The translations under genes and the position numbers were made by a program. This document shows, one piece after another, positions 35,286 to 54,131 of a stretch of DNA of 64,000 nt. Source of the stretch: Puniceicoccaceae bacterium. GTDB lineage: Bacteria; Verrucomicrobiota; Verrucomicrobiia; Opitutales; Coraliomargaritaceae. The notes beneath the pieces were generated by a model that was not told the origin of the DNA, made no database searches, and worked only from the letters and a program-made list of their open reading frames with translations. Numbering within the stretch: the first letter of the stretch is position 1; every line of letters begins with the position of its first letter. The stretch is taken from positions 1 to 64,000 of the forward strand of contig PBYS01000117.1 in the NCBI GenBank assembly GCA_002729725.1, written 5' to 3'.

Positions 35286-35331
35286 TTAATGCACCGTAGG
35301 TGCGACTCACGCCGTATCACGTCATATTTCC

Positions 35332-35368
35332 AAAAGCCCGCTGCTTGTAAAAGCTGCGGGCTTTTTTT
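35332..35368 (+). terminator. Rho-independent terminator after rpsJ
   Basis: AAAAGCCCGC (35332-35341) pairs with GCGGGCTTTT (35356-35365), with a possible inner GCTT/AAGC extension, followed by a run of T. It lies 47 nt after the rpsJ stop. Confidence 0.9.
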
Positions 35369-35399
35369 GTGTCACTCCCACAGGTATCTGAAGCGCGTT

Positions 35400-35882
35400 C
35401 TAAGCGCTTCGGCTCCACTGCTTTTCTATCTCTTTCATTTGATCGAAGTCGCCGCGTTCACAGGCGTTTACAAAACCGTCGGCGAAGGATTTGAGTGTGT
35501 CCCAGCGCTTGCGTATGCCGGCGGCTTCTTCTTGGGTGATCCGTTCGTCGAGGCCAGCGTTGGCGATTTCTCCGAGTAGAGAGGCAAATTGACTGACCAT
35601 CTCATGCGTGGCTGGGTTCAGTGCGTCATGTTTTGCGGATGCGACATTGTTTGGCACGAAATAACCGTCCGCTTGCGCAGCCAACCATTTGATCAATTGA
35701 TTGTCGCCGCAAGCCTCGTTGAGGGCGCAGACTCTGTCTAGCGGATTTTTGGAGCCGCTTTGAGTTTCACCTACTGGTTGCGACCACTTATAGATGAGGG
35801 ACTGTGATATGCCGAGTTCGGCGGCGAGTGCCTTCGGAGAGCTGTCAACGAAGCAAGTTTTGATAATTTCGTGGGATTGCAC
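35400..35882 (-). CDS. HTH regulator resembling phage CII/Cro-type proteins
   Basis: This 160-residue protein has an N-terminal helix-turn-helix, SPKALAAELGISQSLIYKWS, then DRVCALNEACGDNQLIKWLA and a helical C-terminal region (ITQEEAAGIRKRWDTL). The layout matches small phage-like regulators (Phage_CP76 type), though no phage genes are nearby. It is divergent from the YqiJ/flotillin gene pair and could regulate it. That link is inference from position. Confidence 0.65.
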   Translation of the reverse strand: MQSHEIIKTCFVDSSPKALAAELGISQSLIYKWSQPVGETQSGSKNPLDRVCALNEACGDNQLIKWLAAQADGYFVPNNVASAKHDALNPATHEMVSQFASLLGEIANAGLDERITQEEAAGIRKRWDTLKSFADGFVNACERGDFDQMKEIEKQWSRSA

Positions 35883-35991
35883 AGCTAATGATTTTTAGAA
35901 ATTACTTATTTTGGCAAGGTGATTGTATAAAATCTCTCGCTTATTGTAATATATTTGCTCACTTTTCCTGTTATTATTTTGCCCCACTCAA

Positions 35992-36663
35992 ATGATTGAA
36001 GAACTGTTTACTGAAGCCTTGCGTTGGTACAACATGCCCTGGACTCTAATGCTGATCCTAGTCATGTTGTATTGGTCGATTGCGGTTATCGGAGTCGTGG
36101 ACCTGGATTTTTTAGGCTTCGATTTTGACGTGGACGCCGATGTCGATGTGGATGCCGACGCTGATATTGATGCCAATACGGGTGGTGGGGCACTCACTGG
36201 CTTGATGGAGTTTATTCATCTCGGCAGCCTGCCTCTGATGGTCGTGGTGTCGGGCTTGGTGATTTGTGCCTGGTCGATGGCTTTAATTGGCAACTTTTAT
36301 TTAAATTCCGGAGGTTCCGGGATCATTGGTTTTGCGCTGTCCGCTGCGGTCGCAGTGCCGGGCTTGATCGTTTCGTCCTTGGCCTTGTGGCCGGTGGCGG
36401 TCTTTTACCAGCGACTCGAAGACAAGACCGACGGCAATTTGACGATGATTGGGCGAACATGCCATGTGCGTTCAGACCGAGTGGATGCAAGTTTTGGTCA
36501 AGCCGAGGTCAGCACGCCGGAAGGTCCTTTGGTGGTGAATGTGCGCCTTGCTTCGGAGAGTGCCCCGTTGCAAGCGGGAGATACAGCATTGATCATTAGC
36601 GAAGATGCGCAGCGTATGCTTTATACAGTCAGGAAGATAACCAACGAATTAACCAAGATCTAA
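35992..36663 (+). CDS. YqiJ/NfeD-like membrane protein with Asp-rich segment
   Basis: This 223-residue protein has an N-terminal helix (WTLMLILVMLYWSIAVIGVV), an acidic segment with alternating Asp (DVDADVDVDADADIDAN, about residues 44-60), two more helices and a C-terminal OB-fold-like domain (LTMIGRTCHVRSDRVDASFG to YTVRKI). This matches the YqiJ family, the usual partner of flotillins such as YqiK. It lies 6 nt upstream of the flotillin gene. It probably assembles with flotillin in the inner membrane. Confidence 0.8.
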   Translation: MIEELFTEALRWYNMPWTLMLILVMLYWSIAVIGVVDLDFLGFDFDVDADVDVDADADIDANTGGGALTGLMEFIHLGSLPLMVVVSGLVICAWSMALIGNFYLNSGGSGIIGFALSAAVAVPGLIVSSLALWPVAVFYQRLEDKTDGNLTMIGRTCHVRSDRVDASFGQAEVSTPEGPLVVNVRLASESAPLQAGDTALIISEDAQRMLYTVRKITNELTKI

Positions 36664-36669
36664 AATAAT

Positions 36670-38748
36670 ATGAATATGATACAGTCACTTGCCATTATTG
36701 AATCTGTGGGCCTCACAGTGTTGCTAGGAGTCGCTGCGGCGATTGTTGGTTTGTTGGTCACACTTATAAAAATGTACCGTAAGGTCGACCAAGGCTATGC
36801 ACTCGTGCGCAATGGTTTTGGCGGCACACAGGTTTCATTTGCGGGCATGGTGAGTGTGCCAGTGCTGCACAAACTGGAAATCATGGACTTACGGGTGCAG
36901 CACTTGCCCTTGGATCGTCGTGGTAAGGATGGTTTGATCTGTCAGGATAATGTGCGAGCGGATATCAGTGTGGGCTTCTACGTGCGAGTGAATCCGCATG
37001 AAAATGATGTGAAAGCGGTCGCGAAGGCAGTCGGCTGTGAGCGTGCGTCGGATCTGGATAAAATTCGCGAGCTCTTCGATGCCAAGTTCTCGGAAGCTTT
37101 GAAGACTGCAGGTAAGCAATTCGACTTTGAAAGCCTCTACACCGACCGCATTGATTTTCGTAATAAGATCATCGAAGTTATCGGGCAGGATTTGAATGGC
37201 TACGCGCTGGAAGACGTGGCAATTGATTATCTGGAGCAAACTCCACTTGAAGCTTTAAATCCCGACAATATCCTCGACTCCGAGGGCATTAAGAAGATTG
37301 CCGAGCGCACGGCGACTCAGGCGATTCTGGAAAACGAGATTGCGAATAAGCGCATTCAAACCATCAAGCAGAACGATGTGCAGCGTATTGAGGCAGTGTT
37401 GGAGATGGAGAAACAACAAGCGGAGGCTGAAGAGAAGCAAAAGCGTGAAATTTCCGTGATTCGTTCGCGTGAGGAAGCTGAAGCGAAGCGCGTTGCTGAA
37501 GAGCAACGCCTACGCGCCGAGCAAGCTCAGATCAACACTGACGAAGAATTACAAATCGCTCTTGAAAACATGCAGCGCCAGGTGATCGTGGCAGAAAAGA
37601 ATAAGCAGAAGACCGAAGCGGTAGAAACCGAGCGTGTCGAACGTGACCGTCAACTCGAAGTCGTGGAGCGCGATAAGGTCACTACATTGGCGGACATCGA
37701 AAAGACCAAGGCGGTCGAAATTGAAAAGCGCAATATCCAAGATGTCATTAAAGAGCGTGTGATGGTTGAGAAGACCGTCGTGATCGAGCAAGAAAAGATC
37801 AAAGATACCGAGTCCTTTGCCACTGCTGATCGTCAAAAGCGCATCGCAATTACAGATGCGGAAGAAAAGGCCGAACGCGAGAAGCTAACCCGACTGAAGG
37901 AAGCTGAAGCTAGCCAAGAGGCTGAAAAGTTGAAGGCTGACGAAGAATATTACAAGGAGGTCCGCCGGGCCGAGTCTAGCAAGCAAGCTACTGAGCTGTC
38001 TGCGCAAGAGATGATCATCGCCGCTGAAGCAGAAGAAGCCGCTTCGGTCAAACAAGCGCTCGCCAAGAAGCACCTCGCAGAAGGCGTTGCGGCGGAAACC
38101 GCGGCCGAAGGTCTAGGCGATGCCAAGGTCTTGGAAGCAAGGGCTGCTGCCAGCTTGAGGCAGGGCGAAGCCGATGCTAAATCTGCCTCATTGAAGTTCG
38201 AAGCCGATGCCAAGGGCATTACCGAAAAGGCTGCTGCGATGAAACTCTTCAACGAAGCGGGCAAGGAGCACGAAGAGTTTAAACTTCGCCTCGAAAAGGA
38301 CAAAGAGGTCGAGCTCGAAAGCATTCGTGTTAACGAAAATATCGCGCGTCATCAGGCCCAAGTGCTCTCTGATTCGCTTAAGAATACTAAGGTTGATATC
38401 GTGGGTGGTAGCACCGAATTTTATAACGATATCATTGGCGCTGTGACTCGTGGTAAGTCCTTTGAGCGCACCTTGAGTAGCAGTCCCGCACTGACTGATG
38501 TGAAGGAGACCTTCTTCAATGGAGACCCTGAATATTTCCGAGCTCAGGTTTCAAACTGGTTGAAAGACTTCAACATCGATGTGGCCACAGTGAAGGACTT
38601 GTCGATCGCTAACTTGATGATGAAGTTGGCTTCGGAAACTAATGATGAAGATCAGCTCAGCCGCATCCGCGGACTGGCCGGCATGGCTGAGAAGTTCGGT
38701 CTGGCCAATGAGCGTGTGCAACAGTTCCTTAGTATGGGGCAAAAATAG
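36670..38748 (+). CDS. Flotillin-family (YqiK-like) SPFH protein
   Basis: This 692-residue protein has an N-terminal membrane helix (SVGLTVLLGVAAAIVGLLVT) and an SPFH domain (VDQGYALVRNGFGGTQVSFA to about residue 215). A long coiled coil rich in Glu, Lys and Ala runs from about residue 225 to 560. The C-terminal flotillin region contains TKVDIVGGSTEFYNDIIGAV. Flotillins scaffold membrane microdomains in oligomers. It is co-directional with the YqiJ-like gene and followed after a hairpin by a giant ATPase. Confidence 0.92.
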   Translation: MNMIQSLAIIESVGLTVLLGVAAAIVGLLVTLIKMYRKVDQGYALVRNGFGGTQVSFAGMVSVPVLHKLEIMDLRVQHLPLDRRGKDGLICQDNVRADISVGFYVRVNPHENDVKAVAKAVGCERASDLDKIRELFDAKFSEALKTAGKQFDFESLYTDRIDFRNKIIEVIGQDLNGYALEDVAIDYLEQTPLEALNPDNILDSEGIKKIAERTATQAILENEIANKRIQTIKQNDVQRIEAVLEMEKQQAEAEEKQKREISVIRSREEAEAKRVAEEQRLRAEQAQINTDEELQIALENMQRQVIVAEKNKQKTEAVETERVERDRQLEVVERDKVTTLADIEKTKAVEIEKRNIQDVIKERVMVEKTVVIEQEKIKDTESFATADRQKRIAITDAEEKAEREKLTRLKEAEASQEAEKLKADEEYYKEVRRAESSKQATELSAQEMIIAAEAEEAASVKQALAKKHLAEGVAAETAAEGLGDAKVLEARAAASLRQGEADAKSASLKFEADAKGITEKAAAMKLFNEAGKEHEEFKLRLEKDKEVELESIRVNENIARHQAQVLSDSLKNTKVDIVGGSTEFYNDIIGAVTRGKSFERTLSSSPALTDVKETFFNGDPEYFRAQVSNWLKDFNIDVATVKDLSIANLMMKLASETNDEDQLSRIRGLAGMAEKFGLANERVQQFLSMGQK

Positions 38749-38776
38749 GCGCTAGCCGACACTAAGCTGCTAGGGG

Positions 38777-38801
38777 CAGCGACAGCGCGCAGCTGTCGCT
38801 G
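38777..38801 (+). other. Strong hairpin between flotillin and ATPase genes
   Basis: CAGCGACAGC (38777-38786) pairs perfectly with GCTGTCGCTG (38792-38801) around a GCGCA loop. No T tract follows, so it is more likely an mRNA processing or partial-attenuation element than a full terminator. Confidence 0.55.
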
Positions 38802-38845
38802 TCTTCTGCGGCGACTTTATATAAACAGCAGGCAATTGATCCAGT

Positions 38846-41800
38846 ATGGCTAGTCAGAATCCAGCGACAGAGCAAAAACTCGAAGGGGGCGCTTATGAGG
38901 TGATTCGTAATCGCCTGACGACTCAAAGCAGTGCGCTCTTGGAGCGCGTGCAGCAGCTTGATGCGGAGCGTAAATCCGTGTTCGGTGCGGTGGACACTCA
39001 CTTGCTGGCGACCGATCGAATACAGACGGGGAACAATTGCATCCCGCGCGGCATGATTGCATTGCCGGGAGGGCGTTTTATTTTCGGCTACAATGTGCAC
39101 ATGGGCCTGAAGTCGCAGGTGGAGGTGACGGATGTTTTTGCCAAGTTTCGCTACGATGCCTCGGATCACTCTTTTCATGAGGAGCCGCTGGTGGCACTCG
39201 AGTCCAGTGAGTTTGAGGCGGACTTTCAGTACCTTTATAAATATTATAAAAATACTTTCTTTGCGAAGTTTATGATCGTCGGCCCACACCTGTTGATGGT
39301 GTTTCAGATTAGTGACGATCTGCGTGATGTTAAGGTATTCAAATGGCTGATACAGGGCGATACTTTAAGTTACCTCGGTAATCGCTTCGAGCACGAGTAT
39401 GTGTTTCCCGATCAACACTCGTTTAAATGGACGCGGGCGCATCGCGACCTACACCGTACGGGCAGCTTTCCGCACGTCTCGATCGATGATCGCTTGTTTG
39501 TAGAAACCATCGGAGGCGATCTAACGATTAAGGTTGAAGACAATACCGACAGTGGGGAGGGGATTTATTCCGAGCCTGTTGAGAATCCTGATCAAACGCT
39601 GGACGATGCTGACATTCACTATGCATGTGTGGGCAGCCTGATTTTTCTTCGCATTACGCCCTACCAGGAGAAGCAGACGCGCTATTTCATTTATAACGAA
39701 AAGGTGAAAGAAGTGAAGCGCGTGGATTCGGTGGCACACTCCTGTGTGATGTTGCCCGAAGATCACGGGGTGATTTTTGCGGACGGGTATTACCTTCACA
39801 ATGGCGATTTTAAGCGCTTCAGTCATGCCACCGGCGAGATGACCTTTGAGCGCGTGTTGAAAGCACCTAATGGAGAGGATTTTCTCTATGTGTTTTACCA
39901 GCAAAGTGAGGGCCTGTATCAATTGCTCTCCTATAATCTCATTGCTCAAAAAGTTGAGAGTCCGATCGAAGCACACGGCTACAGTACATTTGAGGATGGC
40001 TCGCTGATCTATTTTAAAGCACATGAGGAGCCGCAAAAGCACCACACCTTGCAAATCTGGCAGACTCCGTATGCGACGGAAGAGCTGACTGTCGACGCGA
40101 GTAGCGATAATTATTTATTTAAGATTGGTAACGCCAGCATTGTGCGCTGCATCGCAGAGTGTCACAGCATCTATAATTTGTTGCAGCGCGAAGATGCCTA
40201 CGAGGGGCTCTACCTAGATCTGGTGAAGACCTGTGTGGCCACCATTGATAGCTACTTCTGGCTCGGCTCTGAGGATGCGTTTAATCTCAAAGATACACTG
40301 TCTCAGATTCGTGATACCGGCCAGGCCGCCATTGCGGAATTTGAGAAAGTGCAGCGCATTCGCAAGTCGACCTTGAAGCAGACTCAGCTGGTGCAAACAC
40401 AGGCGCGCAAACTCTTTACCGAGCTTGCGGGCGCGCAGCCGGAAGATGTGCGCGTTTTTGTCGATTATTTGGCTCATCTGCGTCGATTGCGGGGCGAAGT
40501 GATTGGCCTACGGGATCTAAAATACGTCGATATCGCACTGTGTGATGAGCTGGAAGAGGGCGTCGCCACTCAAATGGATTCGCTTGCGCAAGCGACCGTT
40601 GAGTTCCTGCTGCAACCACAGGCGCTGACTCCTTACCACCAGCAATTGCAGCAAGTGGAGAGCGCGATGCCGGAGATCAAAACCGCCGCCATGGCGAAGG
40701 ATCTGCTGGGCGAGCTCGATGGCACCGGTGAGCAACTCGAAATGCTGATCGAAATGGTCTCGAACCTTAAGATCGAAGATGCCACCGAGACCACGCGCAT
40801 CATCGACACCATTTCAGATATTTTTACCGAGCTCAATCGACTCAAGGCCGAGGTGAAACGCTCGCGCCAGGAGCTGATGCGCAAGGAGGGCTCGGCGCAA
40901 TTTCAAGCGCAGATCAAGTTACTGGAGCAATCAGTCGCCAACTATCTGGACATCGCCGATGAGCCCGAGCGCTGTGATGAGTTCTTGACCAAGGCGGTCG
41001 TGCAGCTGGAAGAGCTAGAGGGTAAATACGCGGAGTTTGATGAGTTTATCGAGCTCTTGGCCGACAAGCGGGCGGAACTTTACAATACCTTCGAGTCGAA
41101 GAAGGCGAGTTTGCAGGAGGCGCGCAATCGCCGCGTGAGCAAGCTGGTACAATCTGCAGAGCGCATTTTAAAAGGCATCGAAAATCGCGCCAAAGCTCTC
41201 AAAGAAATCAATGATATTAGCGGGTATTTTGCTTCTGACCTGATGGTCGACAAAGTCCGCGATCTAGTCGAAGAGCTCAAAGCATTAGGAGAGGGCATGA
41301 AGGGCGACGAGTTGCTGACGCGGCTTAAAACCATTCAGGGCGATGCGGTGCGGCAGCTCAAAGATAAACAAGAGCTCTTCGTCGATGGAGAAAACCTCAT
41401 TAAGTTCGGGCGTCACGCTTTTACTGTGAATACGCAGACACTCGAATTGACATCAGTCTTGCGTGAGGGGGCGCTGTATACCCATCTCTCGGGCACTCAG
41501 TTTTACGAGAAGATGCAGGATGCCGAATTGCTGGAGACTCAGCCAGCGTGGCAGATGCATGGCTGCTCGGAGAACGATCAAGTGTATCGTGCCGAGTATT
41601 TGGCCTACAAATATTTGGAGGCGCTGGGGGTCGAGGACTATTTACAACTCAGTGAGGAGGCGCGTCTGGAATCGGTGCGCGATTTTATGGCGCCCCGTTA
41701 TCAAGAGTCCTATACTAAGGGTGTGCACGACTTTGATGCCTGCGCGATTCTCAATCAGCTGGCGCAAACACATTCTAATATTGGTTTACTGCGCTACAAC

Positions 41801-43981
41801 CCTGCCGTCCGCGCTTGCGCCTTAGTTTTTTGGCACAGCCAAGCTGGGCAGAGCTTGACTAACCATCTACGCGAGCGGATCGATGCTTTCGGCCAGATGC
41901 TGCGCCTCTTTCCGAATCATCATACGCAGAAAAATTACATCGATGAGCTTAGAGAGGCCATTGCTCGCTTTGCCCAGGAGAGTGCATTTTTTGAATCGAT
42001 CGAGTACGCCACTGCTGCGGAGTATCTGTTTTATGAAATCGTCCAGGATGCCGATCTTTATTGCACTAAAGAGGCCGCCGATTTGATCGATCGTTTTAAG
42101 CGAGAGCTTTCCACTAAGCGCTTTGAGGAAGCCTATCAAGGTGCGGTGCAGCAAGTCAGCGGCGATGTACTGAGCGAGTATCGTGTGATTCATGATTGGT
42201 TGGAGGGCTATGCTGTCACACATCAGCTAGATGCGGACTTGCGGGTATTCCTGCCCGAGGCAGCCGCACATTTACTGCGCGGTGGTCTCGAGCGTCGTAA
42301 AATTCTCAACGTGCCGATCAAAAATACCGTTGCTGGCCTCAAGGGGGACCACCGCATCATCGCCGATGGGGGGGCTTATCACTTTAATTACCTCGAGTTT
42401 ATGCAACGCATGCGAAAGTTCGAGGCTCAGGATCAAGCCCTTTATTTTCGCTACGAGTCTCGCAAGAAGGAACTTCTAGAACAACAAGAGGCCGAGCTGC
42501 GCCTCAACGAGTTTAAGCCGCAAGTCTTGAGCGCCTTCGTGCGCAATCGCTTGCTGGATGAAGTCTACCTTCCCTTGATCGGTGAGAACTTTGCCAAGCA
42601 AATCGGTAGTGCCGGTGAGGATACACGCACCGACCGCATGGGCTTGCTTTTGTTGATCTCGCCGCCGGGCTATGGTAAGACAACCTTGATGGAGTATGTG
42701 GCTAATCGCCTGGGGATCACCTTTGTCAAAGTCAATGGTCCCTCGCTCGGGCACGACGTCACTTCGCTTGATCCCTCACAATGCCCCAACTTGGCAGCTC
42801 GGCAGGAAGTAGAAAAAATTAACTTAGCCTTCGAGATGGGGGATAATGTGTTGATCTATCTAGATGATATTCAGCACACCAATCCCGAGCTCTTGCAAAA
42901 GTTTATCTCCCTCTGTGATGGCACCCGCCGTATTGAGGGCGTGTATAAGGGGAAGTCGCGCACATACGATTTCCGCGGACGCAAAGTTGCGGTGGTGATG
43001 GCCGGCAATCCATACACCGAGGCCGGGGGCAAATTTCAGATTCCCGACATGTTGGCGAATCGCGCCGACACTTATAACCTTGGTGATATCATTGGTGAAA
43101 ACAGCCAGCACTTTGAGGCCTCCTATATTGAGAATTCCCTAACCTCGAATCGCACCTTGGGCATACTTGCTGGCAAGGATCGCAAGGATGTGTATGCCGT
43201 GATGCAAATTGCGGAGACCGATCAGCGTGAAGGCGTAAGCTTCGTTTCTTCCTACTCGATGGAGGAGATCAACGACATGGTCGCTGTGATGAAGATGATG
43301 ATGCGGGTGCGTGATACCATCTTGCGGGTCAATCTAGAGTATGTGCGCTCCGCTGCGCAGGCAGATGATTATCGCACCGAACCATCCTTTAAACTGCAAG
43401 GCTCGTATCGTAATATGAATCGGATCGCGGAGAAGCTCTTGCCTATCATGTCGGACGCTGAAGTTGAGCAGATCATCGTTGATCACTACACCGGCGAGGC
43501 ACAGACACTCACCGATGGGGCCGAAGCCAATCTGCTTAAGTTCAAAGAGATTGAAGGCAAGCTCAGCGAGGCAGAACAGGCACGCTGGGATGAAATTAAG
43601 AAACGTTTCAATCGAAAGAAATTGCTCGGTGGCAGCGAAGGCGACCCCATCAATCGGGTGGTGGCTCAATTGTCAGACTTCAAGGAAGGGCTGGATGGGA
43701 TTGGACAAGCCTTGGCAGCTGGCCGTAGCGATGCTGAAAATGGCATCGGTGGTGCGATACGTGAACTGGTGAATGTGGTACAAGATCAGGGGGCCCTTTC
43801 GCTCGATCGTGCCAGTGCGCATCAAACAGACATAGAACTCTCTTCATCTCATGCCCATCTACAAGAAGTTGCCTTCAGTTTGGATGAGTCGTCGCTCACG
43901 ATTTTAAATACGCTGATCACATCGATCGACTCTTTGCTCAGTCGCATTAGCGTGAATCACAATGATGGGTCTTCGCAGTAA
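38846..43981 (+). CDS. Giant AAA ATPase (DUF3686-type, annotated as DNA-repair ATPase)
   Basis: This 1711-residue soluble protein has a beta-rich N-terminal region (to about 480) with repeated blade-like segments, then long coiled coils (about 490-900). A second domain follows before a C-terminal AAA module with Walker A ISPPGYGKTTLMEYVANRLG (about residues 1270-1290) and Walker B VLIYLDDIQH (about 1334-1343). A tail of about 300 residues ends in helices. Such proteins carry DUF3686 and are commonly labelled DNA-repair ATPases, with weak functional proof. It follows the flotillin gene after 97 nt on the same strand, which suggests membrane-domain remodelling or stress. The family label is from memory. 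Confidence 0.75.
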   Translation: MASQNPATEQKLEGGAYEVIRNRLTTQSSALLERVQQLDAERKSVFGAVDTHLLATDRIQTGNNCIPRGMIALPGGRFIFGYNVHMGLKSQVEVTDVFAKFRYDASDHSFHEEPLVALESSEFEADFQYLYKYYKNTFFAKFMIVGPHLLMVFQISDDLRDVKVFKWLIQGDTLSYLGNRFEHEYVFPDQHSFKWTRAHRDLHRTGSFPHVSIDDRLFVETIGGDLTIKVEDNTDSGEGIYSEPVENPDQTLDDADIHYACVGSLIFLRITPYQEKQTRYFIYNEKVKEVKRVDSVAHSCVMLPEDHGVIFADGYYLHNGDFKRFSHATGEMTFERVLKAPNGEDFLYVFYQQSEGLYQLLSYNLIAQKVESPIEAHGYSTFEDGSLIYFKAHEEPQKHHTLQIWQTPYATEELTVDASSDNYLFKIGNASIVRCIAECHSIYNLLQREDAYEGLYLDLVKTCVATIDSYFWLGSEDAFNLKDTLSQIRDTGQAAIAEFEKVQRIRKSTLKQTQLVQTQARKLFTELAGAQPEDVRVFVDYLAHLRRLRGEVIGLRDLKYVDIALCDELEEGVATQMDSLAQATVEFLLQPQALTPYHQQLQQVESAMPEIKTAAMAKDLLGELDGTGEQLEMLIEMVSNLKIEDATETTRIIDTISDIFTELNRLKAEVKRSRQELMRKEGSAQFQAQIKLLEQSVANYLDIADEPERCDEFLTKAVVQLEELEGKYAEFDEFIELLADKRAELYNTFESKKASLQEARNRRVSKLVQSAERILKGIENRAKALKEINDISGYFASDLMVDKVRDLVEELKALGEGMKGDELLTRLKTIQGDAVRQLKDKQELFVDGENLIKFGRHAFTVNTQTLELTSVLREGALYTHLSGTQFYEKMQDAELLETQPAWQMHGCSENDQVYRAEYLAYKYLEALGVEDYLQLSEEARLESVRDFMAPRYQESYTKGVHDFDACAILNQLAQTHSNIGLLRYNPAVRACALVFWHSQAGQSLTNHLRERIDAFGQMLRLFPNHHTQKNYIDELREAIARFAQESAFFESIEYATAAEYLFYEIVQDADLYCTKEAADLIDRFKRELSTKRFEEAYQGAVQQVSGDVLSEYRVIHDWLEGYAVTHQLDADLRVFLPEAAAHLLRGGLERRKILNVPIKNTVAGLKGDHRIIADGGAYHFNYLEFMQRMRKFEAQDQALYFRYESRKKELLEQQEAELRLNEFKPQVLSAFVRNRLLDEVYLPLIGENFAKQIGSAGEDTRTDRMGLLLLISPPGYGKTTLMEYVANRLGITFVKVNGPSLGHDVTSLDPSQCPNLAARQEVEKINLAFEMGDNVLIYLDDIQHTNPELLQKFISLCDGTRRIEGVYKGKSRTYDFRGRKVAVVMAGNPYTEAGGKFQIPDMLANRADTYNLGDIIGENSQHFEASYIENSLTSNRTLGILAGKDRKDVYAVMQIAETDQREGVSFVSSYSMEEINDMVAVMKMMMRVRDTILRVNLEYVRSAAQADDYRTEPSFKLQGSYRNMNRIAEKLLPIMSDAEVEQIIVDHYTGEAQTLTDGAEANLLKFKEIEGKLSEAEQARWDEIKKRFNRKKLLGGSEGDPINRVVAQLSDFKEGLDGIGQALAAGRSDAENGIGGAIRELVNVVQDQGALSLDRASAHQTDIELSSSHAHLQEVAFSLDESSLTILNTLITSIDSLLSRISVNHNDGSSQ

Positions 43982-44141: not shown

Positions 44142-44618
44142 ATGAAAACTACCACACTTTGTGCATTCGGCTCCGTAATTCTAATGCAAGCAGCATCAGC
44201 CTCACTCGTGGGCTCTTGGGCTTTTGATGGTGATTCTTTTATTTATAATGGAAATGGTATTGGGATCAGTAGCGATTATGCAGGAACCATCGCTGCTTCG
44301 GAGTGGAATCGTATTACCATTACATTCGATGACTCGCAATTGTCGTATTATATAAATGGTTCTTTGGTGAACCAGGTGAGCAGCACTGCGGATCGGTTTA
44401 ATGTCGGTAGCTCATTACTCATACTCGTGGATAATGGTGCTGAGACTAGTGAGGCATTGCTCAATAATTTAGCTTTCTGGGATCACACTTTGAGCGAGGT
44501 TGAAGTATCTGGTTTCGGTGGAGCCAGTGCGGGCGCGATTGTTCCAGAGCCTTCTGTTTATGCGATGTTGATCGGGCTGGCTGCCTTGGGGGTTAGCATG
44601 ATCCGCCGCCGTTCTTAA
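44142..44618 (+). CDS. PEP-CTERM protein with a shortened LamG-like domain
   Basis: This 158-residue exported protein has a signal peptide and a concanavalin/LamG-like segment (GIGISSDYAGTIAASEWNRI, SYYINGSLVNQV). The C-terminal sorting signal VPEPSVYAMLIGLAALGVSM ends in RRRS, the PEP-CTERM tripartite signal. PEP-CTERM tails are processed by exosortase; no exosortase gene is in the window. Related LamG proteins have about 80-90 extra residues between the start SLVGSWAFDGDS and the FIYNGNGIGIS part, so an in-frame deletion at DGDS is likely. A terminator follows. Confidence 0.75.
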   Translation: MKTTTLCAFGSVILMQAASASLVGSWAFDGDSFIYNGNGIGISSDYAGTIAASEWNRITITFDDSQLSYYINGSLVNQVSSTADRFNVGSSLLILVDNGAETSEALLNNLAFWDHTLSEVEVSGFGGASAGAIVPEPSVYAMLIGLAALGVSMIRRRS

Positions 44619-44636
44619 GGAATTATATATAATATT

Positions 44637-44664
44637 CGGGCAGCTTTGATTTGCCCGATTTTTT
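44637..44664 (+). terminator. Rho-independent terminator after the PEP-CTERM gene
   Basis: CGGGCA (44637-44642) pairs with TGCCCG (44652-44657), followed by A and six T. It lies 18 nt after the stop and before the start of the next gene. Confidence 0.8.
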
Positions 44665-44698
44665 AATTTTACCGCGATGGCCTTTGGGCCTTTTCACC

Positions 44699-46735
44699 AT
44701 GAAATCATTTATTCGTCGTGCATTTGCACACTCATCACTGGCCTTGGTAGCTTTGTTGCCTGCCTCAATCTTTGCGGCGGAGCCTGTGGGGCTTTGGGAA
44801 TTTGAAGATCCATCTGATCTCGGCGCAGCCAGTATCGGAAGCCCATTGCTACTGAACGGCACGGTGACTGCATCTGTGGATGTGCCGGGTGCCGCGGATG
44901 TTGCGCGAACTGCCTATTTGACAGTGACGAACCCTATCGGAGCGAATGGAGATGAGGCCGCGACTCGAAGCAATCAGTTCACCATTGTGATTGATATGAT
45001 GGTGCCTGATTTTACCGACGGTGGTGCGGACAATGGTAACTTCACCGGAATTCTAGAATTTAATAGTGGGGGAGATGGTGATTATTTTATCCGTAAGCAG
45101 ACGGGGAATACGGAACTTGGTGTCGCAGCAATTAATTACACCGGTAGTAGTGGCACATTTTTGAGTAATACATGGTATCGTTTCGTCTATGCGGTCGATA
45201 ACGGCGGAGTGGGCCGCAGTGTCTATTTGAATGGTGTTAAAATTGGTGATAACAATAGTAACAACACTCTCGATTATGACCGCGCTTCGATTGCATCCAC
45301 ATTTGGAATCTTTCAGGATAATACGACTGCTGAACAGTCACGGGTGATCGTCAGTAATATCGCGCTGTATGATGAGCGCTTGAGTGATCAGGAAATCGCT
45401 GATAACAATGCAGCCTTCACTGCATGGTCGGGGGATACCAGTGGTTTGGACATTAATGGCAGCCAGTTTAGTATCGCATCCATGAGCGAACCAGTTGGCC
45501 CAGTGACGGCAAACTTCGCCCTGAACCAATACACGCTGACGGTCGTTTCCGCTCACGGTTCTCCGGTACCAGCAGTTGGCGAGCACCTCTATAGCCATGG
45601 CGCGGAAGTCGACGCATCTGTCGAGCCTGTCAGCCAAGGGAAAACACGTAATATCATCACGGGCTGGTCGACGACGGGCGCGAATAGTGCCAGCGGCTAC
45701 GAATCATCCGTCAATCTGGAACTGACCGGTGATACGACCCTCACCTGGAATTGGGAAACACAAGTATTACTGGAAATCGACAGTGGTGCTGAAGCTAAGC
45801 TCAAGCCCATGGATGCCGGCAAGTGGTATCCAATCAACACTACAGTTCATATCGAGAGTGTGCCTGGACCGTTTTTCACCTTCGTCGAATGGCGTGGTGA
45901 TCTCGGCGAGGCCGATGCGACTCAAGCAAGTCTCAGCCTATTGCTCGATCAGCCGCGCGCGCTCGTCGCTGACTTCTCGCCAGTCTTAGCTGCCAATGGC
46001 ACACCACACTGGTGGTTAGACAATCAAGGTCTGGTCTCTGATGGGAATTTTGATGCCGCTGAATCTTCCGATCCAGATGGTAATGGTCTGACCGCTGCTC
46101 AGGAGTTCGTCGCTGGACTGCCAGTCGGTGGACAGTTGAAAGTAGGCATGGACATTCCAAGCGTCGCTTCGCCGACCATCAACATCACTTGGGGCAGTCA
46201 ACTCGGCCGTCGTTATACCGTGAAGTCCGCTCCGGATTTGAGCACAACCTTTACTGCGATCGATGACGCTGTCGAAGGAGATGGCAACTTAATGGAAATT
46301 TCTGTCGCCGGTCCTGGCGCTGGTAATGATCAAGCCTTCTTCACGGTCGAAGTGGAGGCCTCTCCAGTGGCAACGAGTGCAGATGCCGACGCCGCGATAT
46401 CTTCTCCGGGCACCGCGCAGTTCAACTTCGCCCGGGCGATGGCACACATACCGGCGGGCTCATTCATTATGGGCGAGGATAGCGCTGGTATCGCCGACGT
46501 TCGTCCAGAGCATACTGTGCACCTCGATGCCTTCTATATGGATAAATTTGAGGTGTCCCGAGGTGAGTGGATCGCTGTCGCTACTTGGGCCAATGCCAAT
46601 GGATACGACTTGCCGACCGTTTTGCATGTTTACGACTTCGTGCCCTCCGATGACCACCCGGCTGTGCCGATCACCTGGTATGAAGCAGTGAAATGGTGTA
46701 ATGCGCGCAGTGAAATGGAAGGTCTCGTGCCATGA
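44699..46735 (+). CDS. Secreted LamG protein ending in a truncated sulfatase-modifying-factor domain
   Basis: The product is about 678 residues from ATG 44699. It has a signal peptide and a concanavalin/LamG domain (EPVGLWEFEDPSDLGAASIG to about residue 245). An InlB-like repeat region (LNQYTLTVVSAHGSPVPAVG) and a verrucomicrobial C-terminal unit (WGSQLGRRYTVKSAPDLSTT) follow. The start of an FGE-sulfatase domain is then seen: IPAGSFIMGEDSAGIADVRP, FYMDKFEVSRGEW, PVPITWYEAVKWCNARSEME. That domain normally needs about 250 residues; only about 95 remain, and the cysteine-bearing C-terminus is absent. An upstream in-frame start at 44651 would lie in the terminator and is rejected. Truncation at 46735 leaves the FGE domain inactive. 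Confidence 0.8.
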   Translation: MKSFIRRAFAHSSLALVALLPASIFAAEPVGLWEFEDPSDLGAASIGSPLLLNGTVTASVDVPGAADVARTAYLTVTNPIGANGDEAATRSNQFTIVIDMMVPDFTDGGADNGNFTGILEFNSGGDGDYFIRKQTGNTELGVAAINYTGSSGTFLSNTWYRFVYAVDNGGVGRSVYLNGVKIGDNNSNNTLDYDRASIASTFGIFQDNTTAEQSRVIVSNIALYDERLSDQEIADNNAAFTAWSGDTSGLDINGSQFSIASMSEPVGPVTANFALNQYTLTVVSAHGSPVPAVGEHLYSHGAEVDASVEPVSQGKTRNIITGWSTTGANSASGYESSVNLELTGDTTLTWNWETQVLLEIDSGAEAKLKPMDAGKWYPINTTVHIESVPGPFFTFVEWRGDLGEADATQASLSLLLDQPRALVADFSPVLAANGTPHWWLDNQGLVSDGNFDAAESSDPDGNGLTAAQEFVAGLPVGGQLKVGMDIPSVASPTINITWGSQLGRRYTVKSAPDLSTTFTAIDDAVEGDGNLMEISVAGPGAGNDQAFFTVEVEASPVATSADADAAISSPGTAQFNFARAMAHIPAGSFIMGEDSAGIADVRPEHTVHLDAFYMDKFEVSRGEWIAVATWANANGYDLPTVLHVYDFVPSDDHPAVPITWYEAVKWCNARSEMEGLVP

Positions 46736-46739
46736 TTCG

Positions 46740-47381
46740 TTATTTATACAGTATATCTACGGCTTGCCGCAATTGCCCGAGCATTGTGAGTGGCATGCTT
46801 TGCCGGATGTAATCGAAGGCAGCCTGCAATTACGATTCACCGCGAAAGGGCGACCGCTCGCCTCGGGTGACGCTATCATCTTGCCATGGGAGCGAAATGG
46901 TGTGCAAGTGAGCATCGTATGGAAAAACGGCACGAATGTTCGGCAGTTTTTCCCACCCTCCAAAGGCGGCATTCGTGTCGAATTGGATCAATTGCAGGCC
47001 GGCTCCGGTTCCTTTTTACGCACTGCAAAACGCTATATTGGGCTAGGGGTGCATCATATACTCATCGGCACAGATCACATTTTCTTTGTCTTCGGACTGC
47101 TCCTACTCGTATCCAGTCCTCGTAAATTGCTCTGGACGGTGACTTCTTTCACGCTCGCGCACAGTATCACATTAGGCCTGTCGATTTTTGAAATCCTCCG
47201 CTTTCCGTCATCGGTGGTAGAGACGCTGATCGCCCTCAGCATTGTGTTACTGGCCAAGGAGATCCTCATGGCGCAACGCGGCGAGCACGGACTCGCTTGG
47301 AAATACCCTTGGGCCATTGCCTTCATCTTCGGACTGGTGCATGGGCTCGGATTCGCCGGGGCTCTATCACTCTGCGAGTAG
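46740..47381 (+). pseudogene. HupE/UreJ-type membrane protein fragment
   Basis: Directly after the truncated FGE gene, another frame encodes EGSLQLRFTAKGRPLASGDA and WERNGVQVSIVWKNGT, then helices with VHHILIGTDHIFFVFGLLLL, SFTLAHSITLGLSIF and FGLVHGLGFAGAL, the signature of HupE/UreJ_2 proteins. It has no N-terminal signal or proper start of its own; the frame opens inside the FGE gene. It ends prematurely just after GFAGAL, where further helices are expected. It is a double-truncated remnant. Confidence 0.78.
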
Positions 47382-47473: not shown

Positions 47474-48217
47474 TCAACTTTTTTTACTATTTTCTTTTTC
47501 GAAAGTGACGACTGGGATTTCTTCGCCTTGGGATTCGACAGCGGTGGTGAAGCCCAATTCACCGGAGAGGCTCCTGAGTGCTTCGTGAGCCAGCGCGCGT
47601 TCTTCTTCGGCACTTGGGACCTCTAGTGAGGGCATGCTATCCTGTGCCACACGTGCGCGACCAGCAGCTTTGGCCCGTGCGTCTTCGACCATGTGCTCCA
47701 GGCGGTTCATGGTCTCGCTGGCGCCTCCGATGTCGGCGGTCATACTGCTGGCCATTTCTGATAGGTCGGCTGTGGCTTCCTTCACTTTCAGTTCATTGAT
47801 CTTGGCTTGCAAAGATTCTATCTTCTTTTGCGCTTCTTTGACGCTGGCCTCGCGGTTGCGCGACATTTCCTGATAGGTTTTTTCGGCGGCTTCTAATTGG
47901 TCGCGATTAGTGGTGAGTTCGTTGCGCACTTCGCTGAGCTTGAGTGCTTGGCGACCAGCGAGTTCTTGATTACCGGCAGTAACGTTGGCTTTGATCTTGG
48001 TGAGCAGCTGCGCTTCTTGTTGCTCCTGGCTATTCACTTGAGTGATCAGTTTCTCAACCATCGCGGCATGCGCAGCCAATCCTTGATTGTAGCGTTGGAT
48101 CTGCTTTCGCAGATTCTCTTTTTCCGCTCCGAGGAGTGCCTCAGGGTTGGTTTTTTCTAATTCAGTGACGGCTGAGCCAAATAGACTTTTGAAGAAATGG
48201 AGTACGCGCTTAATCAT
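47474..48217 (-). CDS. PspA/IM30-family membrane-stress protein
   Basis: This 247-residue protein is mostly coiled-coil. It begins MIKRVLHFFKSLFGSAVTEL, an amphipathic N-terminal helix, then NPEALLGAEKENLRKQIQRY and an alternating Glu/Lys/Gln coiled coil to about residue 170. A short C-terminal helix ends the protein. It resembles PspA/IM30 effectors that bind damaged inner membrane. It is about 3.5 kb from the flotillin/ATPase module but on the opposite strand. Confidence 0.82.
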   Translation of the reverse strand: MIKRVLHFFKSLFGSAVTELEKTNPEALLGAEKENLRKQIQRYNQGLAAHAAMVEKLITQVNSQEQQEAQLLTKIKANVTAGNQELAGRQALKLSEVRNELTTNRDQLEAAEKTYQEMSRNREASVKEAQKKIESLQAKINELKVKEATADLSEMASSMTADIGGASETMNRLEHMVEDARAKAAGRARVAQDSMPSLEVPSAEEERALAHEALRSLSGELGFTTAVESQGEEIPVVTFEKENSKKS

Positions 48218-48871: not shown

Positions 48872-51043
48872 CTAGCGGCGTAGTGAGCGGGGTTTAGTGC
48901 TGTTTGTGCTGGGCTCTGTGTCGTCTGCCTGGTCTTCTTCGAACTTACTGCCTTTTAGGTAGATGTCAGACGTGGTGCTGGTCTCGATATATTGTTTAAT
49001 GACTTCGGTTTCGGAGGCTTTATCGATGTAGTCTCGTGATAGATGTTCGGCCTGATCTGGATTTTTAAGTACAGTAGGGCGAATGAAAATAATGATTTCT
49101 GTTCGGCTGTAGTCTTCGGTGTTACCTCCGAAGATATCACGAATGCCAGGGAGACGACCGACAATCGGAAAGTAACTGTTAGTGTCGCCACCAGAATTCT
49201 CTTGGAGTCCGCCTAATACGATGATTTGACCATCTTTCACACTTACGGTAGAAGTGGCTTCACGCACGCCGATGACGGGTTGTTCATTTTCGTCTATAAA
49301 TACTTTATCGACGATGTTTTCGACCTTTTGCTCGATGACCATTTGTACGGTGCCATCGGCTCCGATGAGTGGTGTGACTGTCAATTGTATACCAATGTCG
49401 CGATATTCAACTGAGCTGCTACTGGTACCGCTACTATTATTGTAATTGGTTGAAGAGGTGATGATTGGCTGGGAACGACTGACATTGATAATGCCTTCTT
49501 CGTTGTGGCTGACGACGATACGTGGAGCGGAGAGTACACGTGTGTCGCTATCGTTGTTGGTGGGGGAAATAGAGGAACTGAGCAGAAAATCGCTCGACGA
49601 GTTACTGAGCGGTATCGTTCCTCCCACGCTAGATGTTGCTGAGTTGCCCGGACCATTTATAGAAATTCCGCCAGCTGTTCCGATCAACAGGTCTTCAATT
49701 GACTTACTGGCACCATTGTAAGTCATGCTTATGCTACTTAATCCGCTGGTTTGTTTTTCGCTTAGGCTGACTTGGGTGATCACTGCTTCGATCAGCACTT
49801 GTGGTAATGGAATATCGATTTTCTCAATCAGCTCGCGGAGTGTTTTGAGGTCTTGTTGCGTGCCGTAGGCGACGATCGAGTTGGTGCGCTCGTCGGCGGA
49901 GAGGCCGACAAAATTAGAGAATTGGAGCGAGCTGTTGGCTTCGGTGCCGCCGCTACCGGCTACGGTAGGTGTGGGGACGGCTGGAGCGTTGTTGTTATTC
50001 CCATTGTTTTCGTTGCGCTGGCCGTTGCTACGTTCGTTCTCACGGGCGACTTTGGCGTCTTCTTCGCGGCCTTCTTCTTGTCCGGAAATAATGTCTTCGA
50101 TGATGGGGACCACCTCTTCGGCTTTGGCTTGGCGGAGTTGGAAGACTTCGCTGCCGGTGAGTGGGGCGGCATCGACATCGACACTCTCGATCACGTCTAA
50201 GATGATTTGTAGGTTCCCTGGGTGCGTGATGAGGATGAGCTGATTGGTGCGCTCATCGGCGGTCACGCTGGTATTGCCTTCTAGATAGCTATTGAGCGGG
50301 CCTTGGATGAGGTTCTCCAGGCGGTCTTGCATCTCGGAGGCTTGCACGTAGTCGAGCTTGATAAATTTCACTTGCTCGCGAATGCTCTGGGGCTGATCGG
50401 CTTCGTTGAGGATGGACTCGATGCGTTGCAGGTTGACCAGGGCATCGGAGATGAGCAGTGCGTTGGACTTAGGAAAGGGGAGAAAACTGGAATTTTGAGA
50501 AATCAGGTTTTGCACGAGTGGTACGGCCCCTTCAGTGGCGTTGAGATACTCAAGTTTAAAGAGTTTGGCGTAGATTTGTTGGCTGGGGTCGAGCTCTAGT
50601 GTGCTGCCTGCAAGCATTTGTGGCACGTGTGTGTTTACGTTGGTGGCAGGCACGGCCTTCATAAAACGGCCGCCCATGTCGGTGAGCATGATACCGTTGA
50701 GAGAGAGCAAGCTTTCGATCGCGAGCACGGCTTCGCGTTTGCTTAGGGCGCCGCGGGAGTTGAAGGTGAATTTGAGTGCGGGCAGGTCCTGACGGCGCAA
50801 AATGATCTTATCGGTCATTTGCTCCAGCAGGGTGAGCACTTGCTCGGCGCTGTCTTCGACGAGTATTAGCTCGCCGATCATGGCTTCGGGCTCTTTGAGC
50901 GCGGGCTCGGCGGGTATGGAGGGAACCACGAGTTCGGCGGTGCTGTTACGGCTTGAGGACGCGGGGGTGTCTGTTTCTTGCGCGTCGGAAAAAGAGGCAA
51001 GCGCGATGAAGGCGCTGAGGCTTAGGATGGAGAAGCGGATCAT
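48872..51043 (-). CDS. gspD: Type II secretion secretin GspD
   Basis: This 723-residue outer-membrane secretin has a signal peptide (ending near SFSDAQ) and N-terminal N0/N1-N3 repeats (VNLQRIESILNEADQPQSI, TNQLILITHPGNLQIILDVI). A charged Asn/Gly/Glu-rich insert sits near residue 335-365. The secretin core has VLIEAVITQVSLSE, RDIGIQLTVTPLIGADGTV, GQIIVLGGLQENSGG and EIIIFIRPTVL. It forms the exit channel. Its ATG overlaps the gspM stop (ATGA). Confidence 0.94.
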   Translation of the reverse strand: MIRFSILSLSAFIALASFSDAQETDTPASSSRNSTAELVVPSIPAEPALKEPEAMIGELILVEDSAEQVLTLLEQMTDKIILRRQDLPALKFTFNSRGALSKREAVLAIESLLSLNGIMLTDMGGRFMKAVPATNVNTHVPQMLAGSTLELDPSQQIYAKLFKLEYLNATEGAVPLVQNLISQNSSFLPFPKSNALLISDALVNLQRIESILNEADQPQSIREQVKFIKLDYVQASEMQDRLENLIQGPLNSYLEGNTSVTADERTNQLILITHPGNLQIILDVIESVDVDAAPLTGSEVFQLRQAKAEEVVPIIEDIISGQEEGREEDAKVARENERSNGQRNENNGNNNNAPAVPTPTVAGSGGTEANSSLQFSNFVGLSADERTNSIVAYGTQQDLKTLRELIEKIDIPLPQVLIEAVITQVSLSEKQTSGLSSISMTYNGASKSIEDLLIGTAGGISINGPGNSATSSVGGTIPLSNSSSDFLLSSSISPTNNDSDTRVLSAPRIVVSHNEEGIINVSRSQPIITSSTNYNNSSGTSSSSVEYRDIGIQLTVTPLIGADGTVQMVIEQKVENIVDKVFIDENEQPVIGVREATSTVSVKDGQIIVLGGLQENSGGDTNSYFPIVGRLPGIRDIFGGNTEDYSRTEIIIFIRPTVLKNPDQAEHLSRDYIDKASETEVIKQYIETSTTSDIYLKGSKFEEDQADDTEPSTNSTKPRSLRR

Positions 51044-51600
51044 TGCAGGTTGGAGTCTTTTAGATCGAAAGAGTTGATTTCATAGCGCACATCGAGTTGC
51101 TCGGGGTTACGCTGGTTTTTCTGAATGCGGACATTCTGTAGATTGATGTAGGGGGTCTCTTGCTTGATTAGGTCGTTGAGCCGGATTAGTTGTGCAATGG
51201 AAATGCTTTTGAGGCGCACACGCAGGTTGTGATCGTTGAAAATTTCGCCTTCACGGGTGCGGACTGAGTCGATGTCGGCCTGGCCCGAGAGGCCAATTTG
51301 GCGTGTAAGACTATCGACGCGCCCAGAGAGTTGTGCAGCATCGTAGGTTTTTGAGGGGTCGACACGTTCCAGTGCGGTCGCAAGGCCCTCGGCAAAGAAG
51401 TCGCTGCGATCGAGCCATTCCTGTTGGGTGGTGAGCTCGATGGTGGAGAGTTTACGCTGGGCATTCCAATCGGACATGCGGCCGAGCCAGTTGTTGCTCC
51501 AGATGAAGAGGATGACTAAAATAAAACTAAGCGAGAGTAGTTTCTCGCGCAGGCTCATGCGCTTATAAAAGCGTCGGGTGCTGTGCTTGAGTGTGCTCAT
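51040..51600 (-). CDS. GspM/PilO-like type II secretion inner-membrane protein
   Basis: This 186-residue protein has an N-terminal membrane helix (LLSLSFILVILFIWSNNWLG), a coiled segment and a small ferredoxin-like domain (NLRVRLKSISIAQLIRLNDL), as in GspM/PilO. Overlaps with the upstream and downstream genes (4 nt each) indicate a coupled operon. Position between the L-like gene and gspD supports GspM. Confidence 0.72.
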   Translation of the reverse strand: MSTLKHSTRRFYKRMSLREKLLSLSFILVILFIWSNNWLGRMSDWNAQRKLSTIELTTQQEWLDRSDFFAEGLATALERVDPSKTYDAAQLSGRVDSLTRQIGLSGQADIDSVRTREGEIFNDHNLRVRLKSISIAQLIRLNDLIKQETPYINLQNVRIQKNQRNPEQLDVRYEINSFDLKDSNLQ

Positions 51601-54130: not shown

Positions 54131-54131
54131 T

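What the first reader, a model, noticed from the sequence alone, without database searches (positions are those of the whole stretch)
35992..43981. YqiJ, flotillin and a 1711-residue AAA ATPase as one putative membrane-remodelling unit
Three co-directional genes encode a membrane partner with an acidic loop, a long flotillin and a giant coiled-coil AAA protein, with PspA/IM30 3.5 kb away. Giant ATPases of this type are called DNA-repair proteins on thin evidence. Co-location with flotillin and PspA argues instead for a role in envelope stress, for example remodelling flotillin oligomers or extracting proteins from microdomains.
Basis: partly seen in the sequence, partly recalled or inferred. 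Interest (0 to 1): 0.65.

Follow-up and report, generated by a model that had tools for sequence, protein, structure and literature searches.

The report
Flotillin operon with giant AAA+ ATPase
A bacterial chromosome carries a conserved three-gene set, a small membrane protein, a membrane-domain scaffold (flotillin) and a giant ATP-driven machine, that almost always occurs as a unit across many phyla and is often beside membrane-stress genes; this makes the machine's standard label 'DNA repair ATPase' probably wrong, but the gene set itself was already described in 2024.

Summary
Three co-directional genes at 35992-43981 encode a YqiJ-like membrane protein, a YqiK-type SPFH/flotillin and a DUF3686-DUF7902-AAA+ protein. 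A weak PspA/IM30 gene lies 3,493 bp downstream, convergent. The operon class is not new: Ravi et al. 2024 (PMC11237479) predicted it as a PspA-linked 'band-7/flotillin + beta-propeller/coiled-coil AAA+ + YqiJ' operon. I add quantitative and structural support. In 387 genomes of the phylum, 33 of 34 with the ATPase carry this flotillin type, and none carries that flotillin without the ATPase. Across 100 loci, 93 have the flotillin directly upstream on the same strand. Recurrent neighbours are PspA, CesT/Tir and regulators, not DNA-repair genes. PspA is enriched in ATPase genomes (20/34 versus 19/353). A CII-like regulator recurs beside the unit in 11 loci, including this window (35400-35882, minus strand), apparently unreported. 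The AAA+ module has its catalytic residues invariant and is structurally nearest to MoxR-type remodelling chaperones (CbbQ, NorQ), not Vps4. Best reading: a flotillin-anchored ATP-driven remodeller serving envelope maintenance together with PspA. The coupling is strong; the mechanism is inferred.

The parts
35400..35882 (-). CII-like (Phage_CP76) helix-turn-helix regulator, divergent from yqiJ; candidate regulator of the unit
   Evidence: Pfam PF06892 38.2 bits, PHROG 101 CII-like activator 52.5 bits; 87% identical in sister genome G003 at the same place; homologues beside the unit in 11 loci
35883..35991 (.). 109-bp divergent intergenic region, presumed regulatory region for the unit and the CII-like gene
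   Evidence: sequence; no promoter-like match on the + strand there; role inferred
35992..36663 (+). YqiJ-like membrane protein (223 aa) with acidic loop
   Evidence: Pfam PF21001 27.1 bits, cut-off 23; loop net charge about -9 median in 92 homologues
36670..38748 (+). YqiK-type SPFH/flotillin (692 aa): N-terminal membrane helix, SPFH, long coiled coil, C-terminal add-on domain
   Evidence: 26% identity over 424 aa to E. coli YqiK, E=2e-36; C-terminal add-on present in 93 of 96 unit flotillins
38846..43981 (+). Giant DUF3686-DUF7902-AAA+ ATPase (1711 aa): beta-propeller (about residues 50-410), coiled coils (about 480-845), helical middle region, AAA+ (about 1230-1590)
   Evidence: Pfam; AlphaFold models pLDDT 87.5 (1-850) and 85.5 (845-1711); fold searches; motif conservation
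47474..48217 (-). Divergent PspA/IM30-like protein, probable loosely linked partner, convergent with the ATPase
   Evidence: Pfam PF04012 36.2 bits, cut-off 33.9; only PspA match in the genome; in sister genome G003 it lies 393 bp from the ATPase with different genes beyond

Best explanation
The three genes make one membrane-associated machine. The YqiK-type flotillin, anchored by its N-terminal helix and assembled through its coiled coil, with YqiJ as membrane partner, forms a platform or cage on the inner membrane. The giant ATPase docks on it from the cytoplasm through its beta-propeller and coiled-coil half. It uses a hexameric, MoxR-like AAA+ ring to remodel a flotillin-bound client: the flotillin assembly itself, a membrane complex, or the PspA scaffold. 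The machine serves envelope maintenance or stress, together with PspA-type proteins when the genome has them. Shown here: genetic linkage, phyletic co-occurrence, correlated divergence, an intact AAA+ active site, PspA and regulator context, and absence of recurrent DNA-repair neighbours. Inferred: physical complex, oligomeric state, client, stress role.
For: In the phylum sample 33/34 ATPase genomes have the unit-type flotillin, and that flotillin never occurs without the ATPase. They stay together in G171 and G357, where 7-8 kb upstream of the ATPase holds no flotillin and it lies on another contig. 93 of 100 loci have a co-directional flotillin upstream, median gap 127 bp, and 88 also yqiJ. 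ATPase-flotillin distances correlate r=0.88 and ATPase-YqiJ r=0.78 (n=89; shared ancestry contributes). PspA occurs at 30 loci and is over the family cut-off in 20/34 ATPase genomes versus 19/353 others. It is just upstream of yqiJ-flotillin in nine phylum genomes. PspF lies divergent from PspA in three loci. Walker A, Walker B (DD), sensor-1 N1388, R1406 and sensor-2 R1522 are 100% conserved in 120 sequences. The AAA+ module is nearest to CbbQ (Z 17.4) and NorQ (16.7), ahead of dynein (14.9) and ClpA (13.5). Precedents: the SPFH protein YdjI brings PspA to the membrane in B. subtilis (PMC8581546), and HflK/C forms a membrane complex with the AAA+ protease FtsH (PMC13220708).
Against: No interaction, structure of the complex, expression or phenotype was tested. 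Fourteen of 34 ATPase genomes have no PspA over cut-off, so PspA cannot be obligatory. E. coli has yqiJ-yqiK without the ATPase, so flotillin does not generally need it. In P. aeruginosa deletion of SPFH genes gave little phenotype (PMC13086221). Co-occurrence counts are not corrected for relatedness, and the flotillin profile was built from ATPase-linked copies. A MoxR-like module usually has a VWA partner; none recurs here.
Confidence: 0.6

Rival explanations
1. The ATPase is a DNA-repair or DNA-processing enzyme, as annotated (Pfam DUF3686 'ATPase involved in DNA repair'; NCBI 'DNA repair ATPase'), and sits by flotillin for another reason.
For: Annotation only. Walker-A-region similarity to RuvB, shared by many AAA+ proteins. 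In eight loci a PDDEXK_3 (GxxExxY) gene lies near the unit, in most of them directly upstream of the ATPase.
Against: No DNA-repair family recurs: the 25 commonest Pfam families among 114 flanking proteins hold none, and none exceeds 3 members. The S24 domain of the divergent Bacteroidota regulator has lost its catalytic Ser and Lys, so it is not an evident SOS repressor. Near-absolute coupling is to a membrane protein.
Confidence: 0.07
2. A PspA-centred ESCRT-like system: the ATPase is a Vps4 analogue that disassembles PspA/IM30 polymers, with flotillin and YqiJ only as the membrane receptor.
For: PspA linked or present in many genomes; in Kiritimatiellota a CII-PspA-YqiJ-Flot-ATPase array; in the sister genome PspA lies 393 bp from the ATPase. 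Ravi et al. suggest ESCRT-like roles.
Against: Flotillin, not PspA, is the constant partner (33/34 versus 20/34). The AAA+ module has a pre-sensor-1 hairpin and is nearest to MoxR, unlike Vps4's classic AAA type.
Confidence: 0.2
3. An ATP-dependent quality-control chaperone for membrane proteins: flotillin/YqiJ gathers unfolded or damaged proteins and the ATPase unfolds or hands them on, comparable to FtsH-HflKC but without a protease.
For: SPFH precedent with an AAA+ protease (PMC13220708); S. aureus FloA-NfeD stabilises unfolded proteins, as cited in PMC13086221; no protease domain found in the ATPase.
Against: No client or degradation partner identified; conserved PspA and regulator context points to a specific stress response.
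Confidence: 0.25

Closest known systems
Band-7/flotillin + beta-propeller/coiled-coil AAA+ + YqiJ/YuaF operon of Ravi et al. 2024 (PMC11237479)
   Same: Same three proteins and architectures; the abbreviated form without the CesT/Tir-PspA dyad is described there too.
   Different: In the window PspA is downstream and convergent, no CesT/Tir gene was found, and a CII-like regulator stands divergent upstream. The paper's main text does not mention CII, LexA or MoxR.
E. coli YqiJ-YqiK / B. subtilis YuaF-FloT (NfeD-SPFH operons)
   Same: YqiK is a clear homologue over SPFH and coiled coil; order small membrane protein then flotillin.
   Different: No giant ATPase in E. coli; the C-terminal part of the flotillin differs; YqiJ similarity is weak in a pairwise test.
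FtsH-HflK/C
   Same: SPFH membrane assembly paired with an AAA+ motor.
   Different: The motor here has no protease domain and is MoxR-like with propeller and coiled coils.
MoxR-type AAA+ chaperones (CbbQ, NorQ)
   Same: Closest solved AAA+ structures (Z 17.4, 16.7); dedicated remodelling chaperones.
   Different: No VWA partner gene recurs; about 1,200 extra N-terminal residues; helix-2 insert not demonstrated.
PspA-YdjGHI of B. subtilis (PMC8581546)
   Same: SPFH protein plus membrane proteins plus PspA acting together.
   Different: No giant ATPase; different membrane partners.

Membership tests
Ravi et al. flotillin-AAA+-YqiJ operon (abbreviated form) | band-7/SPFH protein with membrane helix, coiled coil and flotillin-like C-terminus | tested here: met
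   YqiK homology E=2e-36, 99.9% probability; Band_7 hit in 2 of 12 relatives
Ravi et al. [quoted passage not shown]
   Model 1-850: strands 52-406 matching beta-propellers (best Z about 8.5, modest), then long helices; AAA+ at the C-terminus
Ravi et al. flotillin-AAA+-YqiJ operon (abbreviated form) | YqiJ/YuaF-type membrane protein encoded alongside | tested here: met
   PF21001 27.1 bits, cut-off 23
Long form of that operon (with CesT/Tir-PspA dyad) | CesT/Tir-PspA genes in the operon | tested here: not met
   No CesT hit in the window; PspA is convergent and 3.5 kb away
MoxR AAA+ family | pre-sensor-1 beta-hairpin and best structural match to MoxR members | tested here: met
   Strands 518-523/526-531 before the sensor-1 strand; CbbQ Z 17.4, NorQ Z 16.7
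MoxR AAA+ family | helix-2 insert | tested here: inconclusive
   No clear beta-alpha-beta insert in the predicted secondary structure; not examined in a superposition
MoxR AAA+ family | VWA-domain partner gene | tested here: inconclusive
   None among recurrent neighbours; could be encoded elsewhere
Vps4 / classic AAA | classic AAA module without pre-sensor-1 hairpin | tested here: not met
   Hairpin present in the model; best matches are MoxR-type
DNA-repair ATPase (annotation) | linked to DNA-repair genes | tested here: not met
   No recurrent repair family among flanking proteins
DNA-repair ATPase (annotation) | biochemical or genetic role in repair | not testable with these tools
   No paper in the library contains 'DUF3686', and none both 'DNA repair ATPase' and 'flotillin'
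PspA/IM30 (window 47474-48217) | PF04012 match over curated cut-off | tested here: met
   36.2 bits, cut-off 33.9; weak, sister copy 33.4

The most novel reading that the evidence does not exclude
The giant ATPase is a dedicated remodelling motor of a flotillin scaffold, a MoxR-type counterpart of FtsH-HflKC and Vps4-ESCRT-III, switched on by lineage-specific stress regulators (CII-like HTH, PspF, or XRE with a dead S24 domain). To my knowledge it would be the first AAA+ machine assigned to the flotillin branch of SPFH proteins.
Probability: 0.35. Interest if true: 0.75.

Novelty: new member of a known kind. Interest (0 to 1): 0.45.

Why it matters
Bacterial flotillins have many proposed roles and few mechanisms. 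A motor that virtually never occurs without one flotillin type, found in Bacteroidota, Verrucomicrobiota, Planctomycetota, Bacillota, Actinomycetota, Deinococcota and Pseudomonadota, gives a concrete, testable partner. It also means that a widely propagated annotation, 'DNA repair ATPase', is probably misleading.

Tried and rejected
DNA-repair reading: flanking-gene census, no recurrent repair family. SOS control: the XRE regulator's S24 domain lacks catalytic Ser/Lys. Sigma-54 promoters near PspF-linked loci: a strict TGGC-N7-TTGC-type scan found none in L054, L055 or L062. Anti-phage defence: no meaningful PADLOC hit and no phage homologue. Recent horizontal transfer: the ATPase tree largely follows phyla (7 label changes, the minimum), so patchiness fits loss or old spread, although 12 plasmid-collection records carry it. 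A 3,320-aa 'fusion' in L091 is an artefact of masked N bases. Search of solved structures by sequence with the flotillin profile: no hit. No claim is made that any part of the models lacks a known fold.

Full report
WHAT IS THERE. The window lies in a 4.7-Mb, 125-contig, near-complete genome of a Verrucomicrobiota-type bacterium; the closest named relative by ATPase is Cerasicoccus maritimus. Downstream of rpsL-rpsG-fusA-rpsJ stand yqiJ (35992-36663), a flotillin gene (36670-38748) and a giant ATPase gene (38846-43981), all on the + strand with gaps of 6 and 97 bp. The YqiJ-like protein passes the Pfam YqiJ_N cut-off. The flotillin has no Pfam hit of its own but is a YqiK homologue. The ATPase carries DUF3686, DUF7902 and AAA. 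The ORF at 35289-35579 that follows rpsJ is probably not a gene: the overlapping minus-strand ORF 35400-35882 is 87% conserved in sister genome G003 and encodes a CII-like helix-turn-helix protein. A weak PspA/IM30 lies at 47474-48217 on the minus strand.

IS IT A UNIT? In 387 genomes of the phylum the ATPase family occurs in 34. A profile of unit flotillins finds 33 genomes at 495 bits or more, all among the 34, and then a gap down to five genomes at about 175 bits. The five weaker ones carry PspA beside a different SPFH gene and have no ATPase. Fisher p is about 5e-47, not corrected for relatedness. In G171 and G357 the two genes lie on different contigs with 7-8 kb of flotillin-free DNA upstream of the ATPase, so they co-occur without close linkage. 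Several named loci without a nearby flotillin carry one elsewhere in the genome. Of 122 loci examined, 100 have at least 5 kb upstream; 93 of these have the flotillin co-directional and upstream, 88 yqiJ as well, and one (L132) has the pair divergent. Pairwise distances of ATPase and flotillin correlate r=0.88. The set spans Bacteroidota, Verrucomicrobiota, Planctomycetota, Kiritimatiellota, Bacillota, Thermodesulfobacteriota, Chlorobiota and Pseudomonadota, with Actinomycetota and Deinococcota from plasmid records.

WHAT ELSE TRAVELS WITH IT. Clustering of flanking genes gives PspA at 30 loci, an XRE regulator at 18 (17 of them divergent and upstream) and CesT/Tir at 14. PspF lies divergent from PspA in three loci of one family (TIGR02974, 322 bits, below that model's equivalog cut-off). 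A PLD-type protein occurs at six. The CII-like protein occurs at 11: divergent from yqiJ in the window, L064, L075, L082, L096 and L131, and upstream on the PspA side in L041, L045, L053, L057 and L093, the last two being the same genome. In L053 the order is CII-PspA-YqiJ-Flot-ATPase, the first three genes nearly touching. The window and its sister therefore hold the same five parts in another layout. In sister G003 PspA lies 393 bp from the ATPase and none of the genes beyond it match the window's, so its nearness to the unit outlasts a change of flank; with two close genomes this is suggestive only. PspA is over cut-off in 20/34 ATPase genomes and 19/353 others.

DNA REPAIR. No Pfam repair family is among the 25 commonest in 114 flanking proteins, and the top count is 3. 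Sequence similarity to RuvB is limited mostly to the Walker A region. The one DNA-enzyme-like recurrence is a small PDDEXK_3 gene at eight loci.

STRUCTURE. Models of residues 1-850 (pLDDT 87.5) and 845-1711 (85.5) show a propeller-like domain (best Z about 8.5 to WD40 propellers, modest), long coiled coils, a helical middle part and a C-terminal AAA+ module. The AAA+ module aligns best to CbbQ and NorQ (Foldseek alone ranks RuvB and NorQ together at the top), and the model has a beta-hairpin before sensor 1. Walker A GYGKT, the Walker B aspartates (DD, not DE), N1388, R1406 and R1522 are invariant in 120 sequences. It is therefore very probably an active ATPase; the second Walker B aspartate in place of the usual glutamate is unexplained.

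MECHANISM. Shown: coupling of genes, active-site conservation and context. Inferred: the flotillin/YqiJ platform recruits the ATPase, which remodels a client at the membrane. The client may be the flotillin assembly, a membrane complex or PspA; the constant partner is flotillin, which favours the first two. Experimental precedent for an SPFH-PspA link exists in B. subtilis (PMC8581546) and for an SPFH-AAA+ complex in HflKC-FtsH (PMC13220708).

WHAT WAS KNOWN. Ravi et al. 2024 describe the operon, including the beta-propeller AAA+ and abbreviated versions, and propose assembly of sub-membrane complexes. Their main text does not mention MoxR, CII or LexA; supplementary files were not readable here. 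My additions are the near-absolute phyletic coupling, the MoxR-like placement, the invariant active site, the lineage-specific regulators, and a direct test against the repair label.

LIMITS. The 80 named loci are the best-scoring of more than 591 matches, so biased to close relatives. Co-occurrence was measured in one phylum without phylogenetic correction, and the flotillin profile came from ATPase-linked copies. Z-scores rank a pre-selected list. Only single chains were modelled. No literature phenotype for the ATPase was found in the open library.

Noticed in passing
window 44142-47381: Three genes between the ATPase and PspA (a PEP-CTERM laminin-G protein, an FGE-sulfatase-domain protein, a HupE/UreJ protein) are absent from the corresponding 393-bp gap in sister genome G003 (L064), so they were gained here or lost there.
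   Followed up: partly
L040, L048, L051, L052, L074, L125, L133 upstream of the ATPase; L054:4331-4774: Small GxxExxY/PDDEXK_3 genes repeatedly occupy the space just upstream of the ATPase, mostly between it and the flotillin; possibly a repeatedly inserted element.
   Followed up: partly
L047 (G135:C24:48461-50306): Three tandem PspA-like genes directly upstream of yqiJ-flotillin-ATPase.
   Followed up: no
G061, G062, G063, G079, G298: A different SPFH gene (about 175 bits) with PspA beside it and no giant ATPase, apparently a separate PspA-SPFH pairing in the same order.
   Followed up: no
L032, L076, L094, L102, L106, L110 and other Bacteroidota loci: Divergent XRE regulator with an S24-like domain that has lost catalytic Ser/Lys, upstream of CesT-PspA-YqiJ-flotillin-ATPase.
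   Followed up: partly
window 48872-54193 (-): Secretin gene and three adjoining genes, likely a type II secretion or type IV pilus cluster; not near PspA in sister genome G003.
   Followed up: no
L033 (plasmid pQBR103) 3986-17190: The unit sits in one long array with YjfI, PspA, DUF2491, DUF350, DUF1190 and a glutathionylspermidine synthase-like gene on a megaplasmid, joining two operon types that Ravi et al. list separately.
   Followed up: partly
window 42866-42868 (ATPase residue D1341): The Walker B motif is DD rather than DE in all 120 homologues, an uncommon but invariant choice.
   Followed up: no
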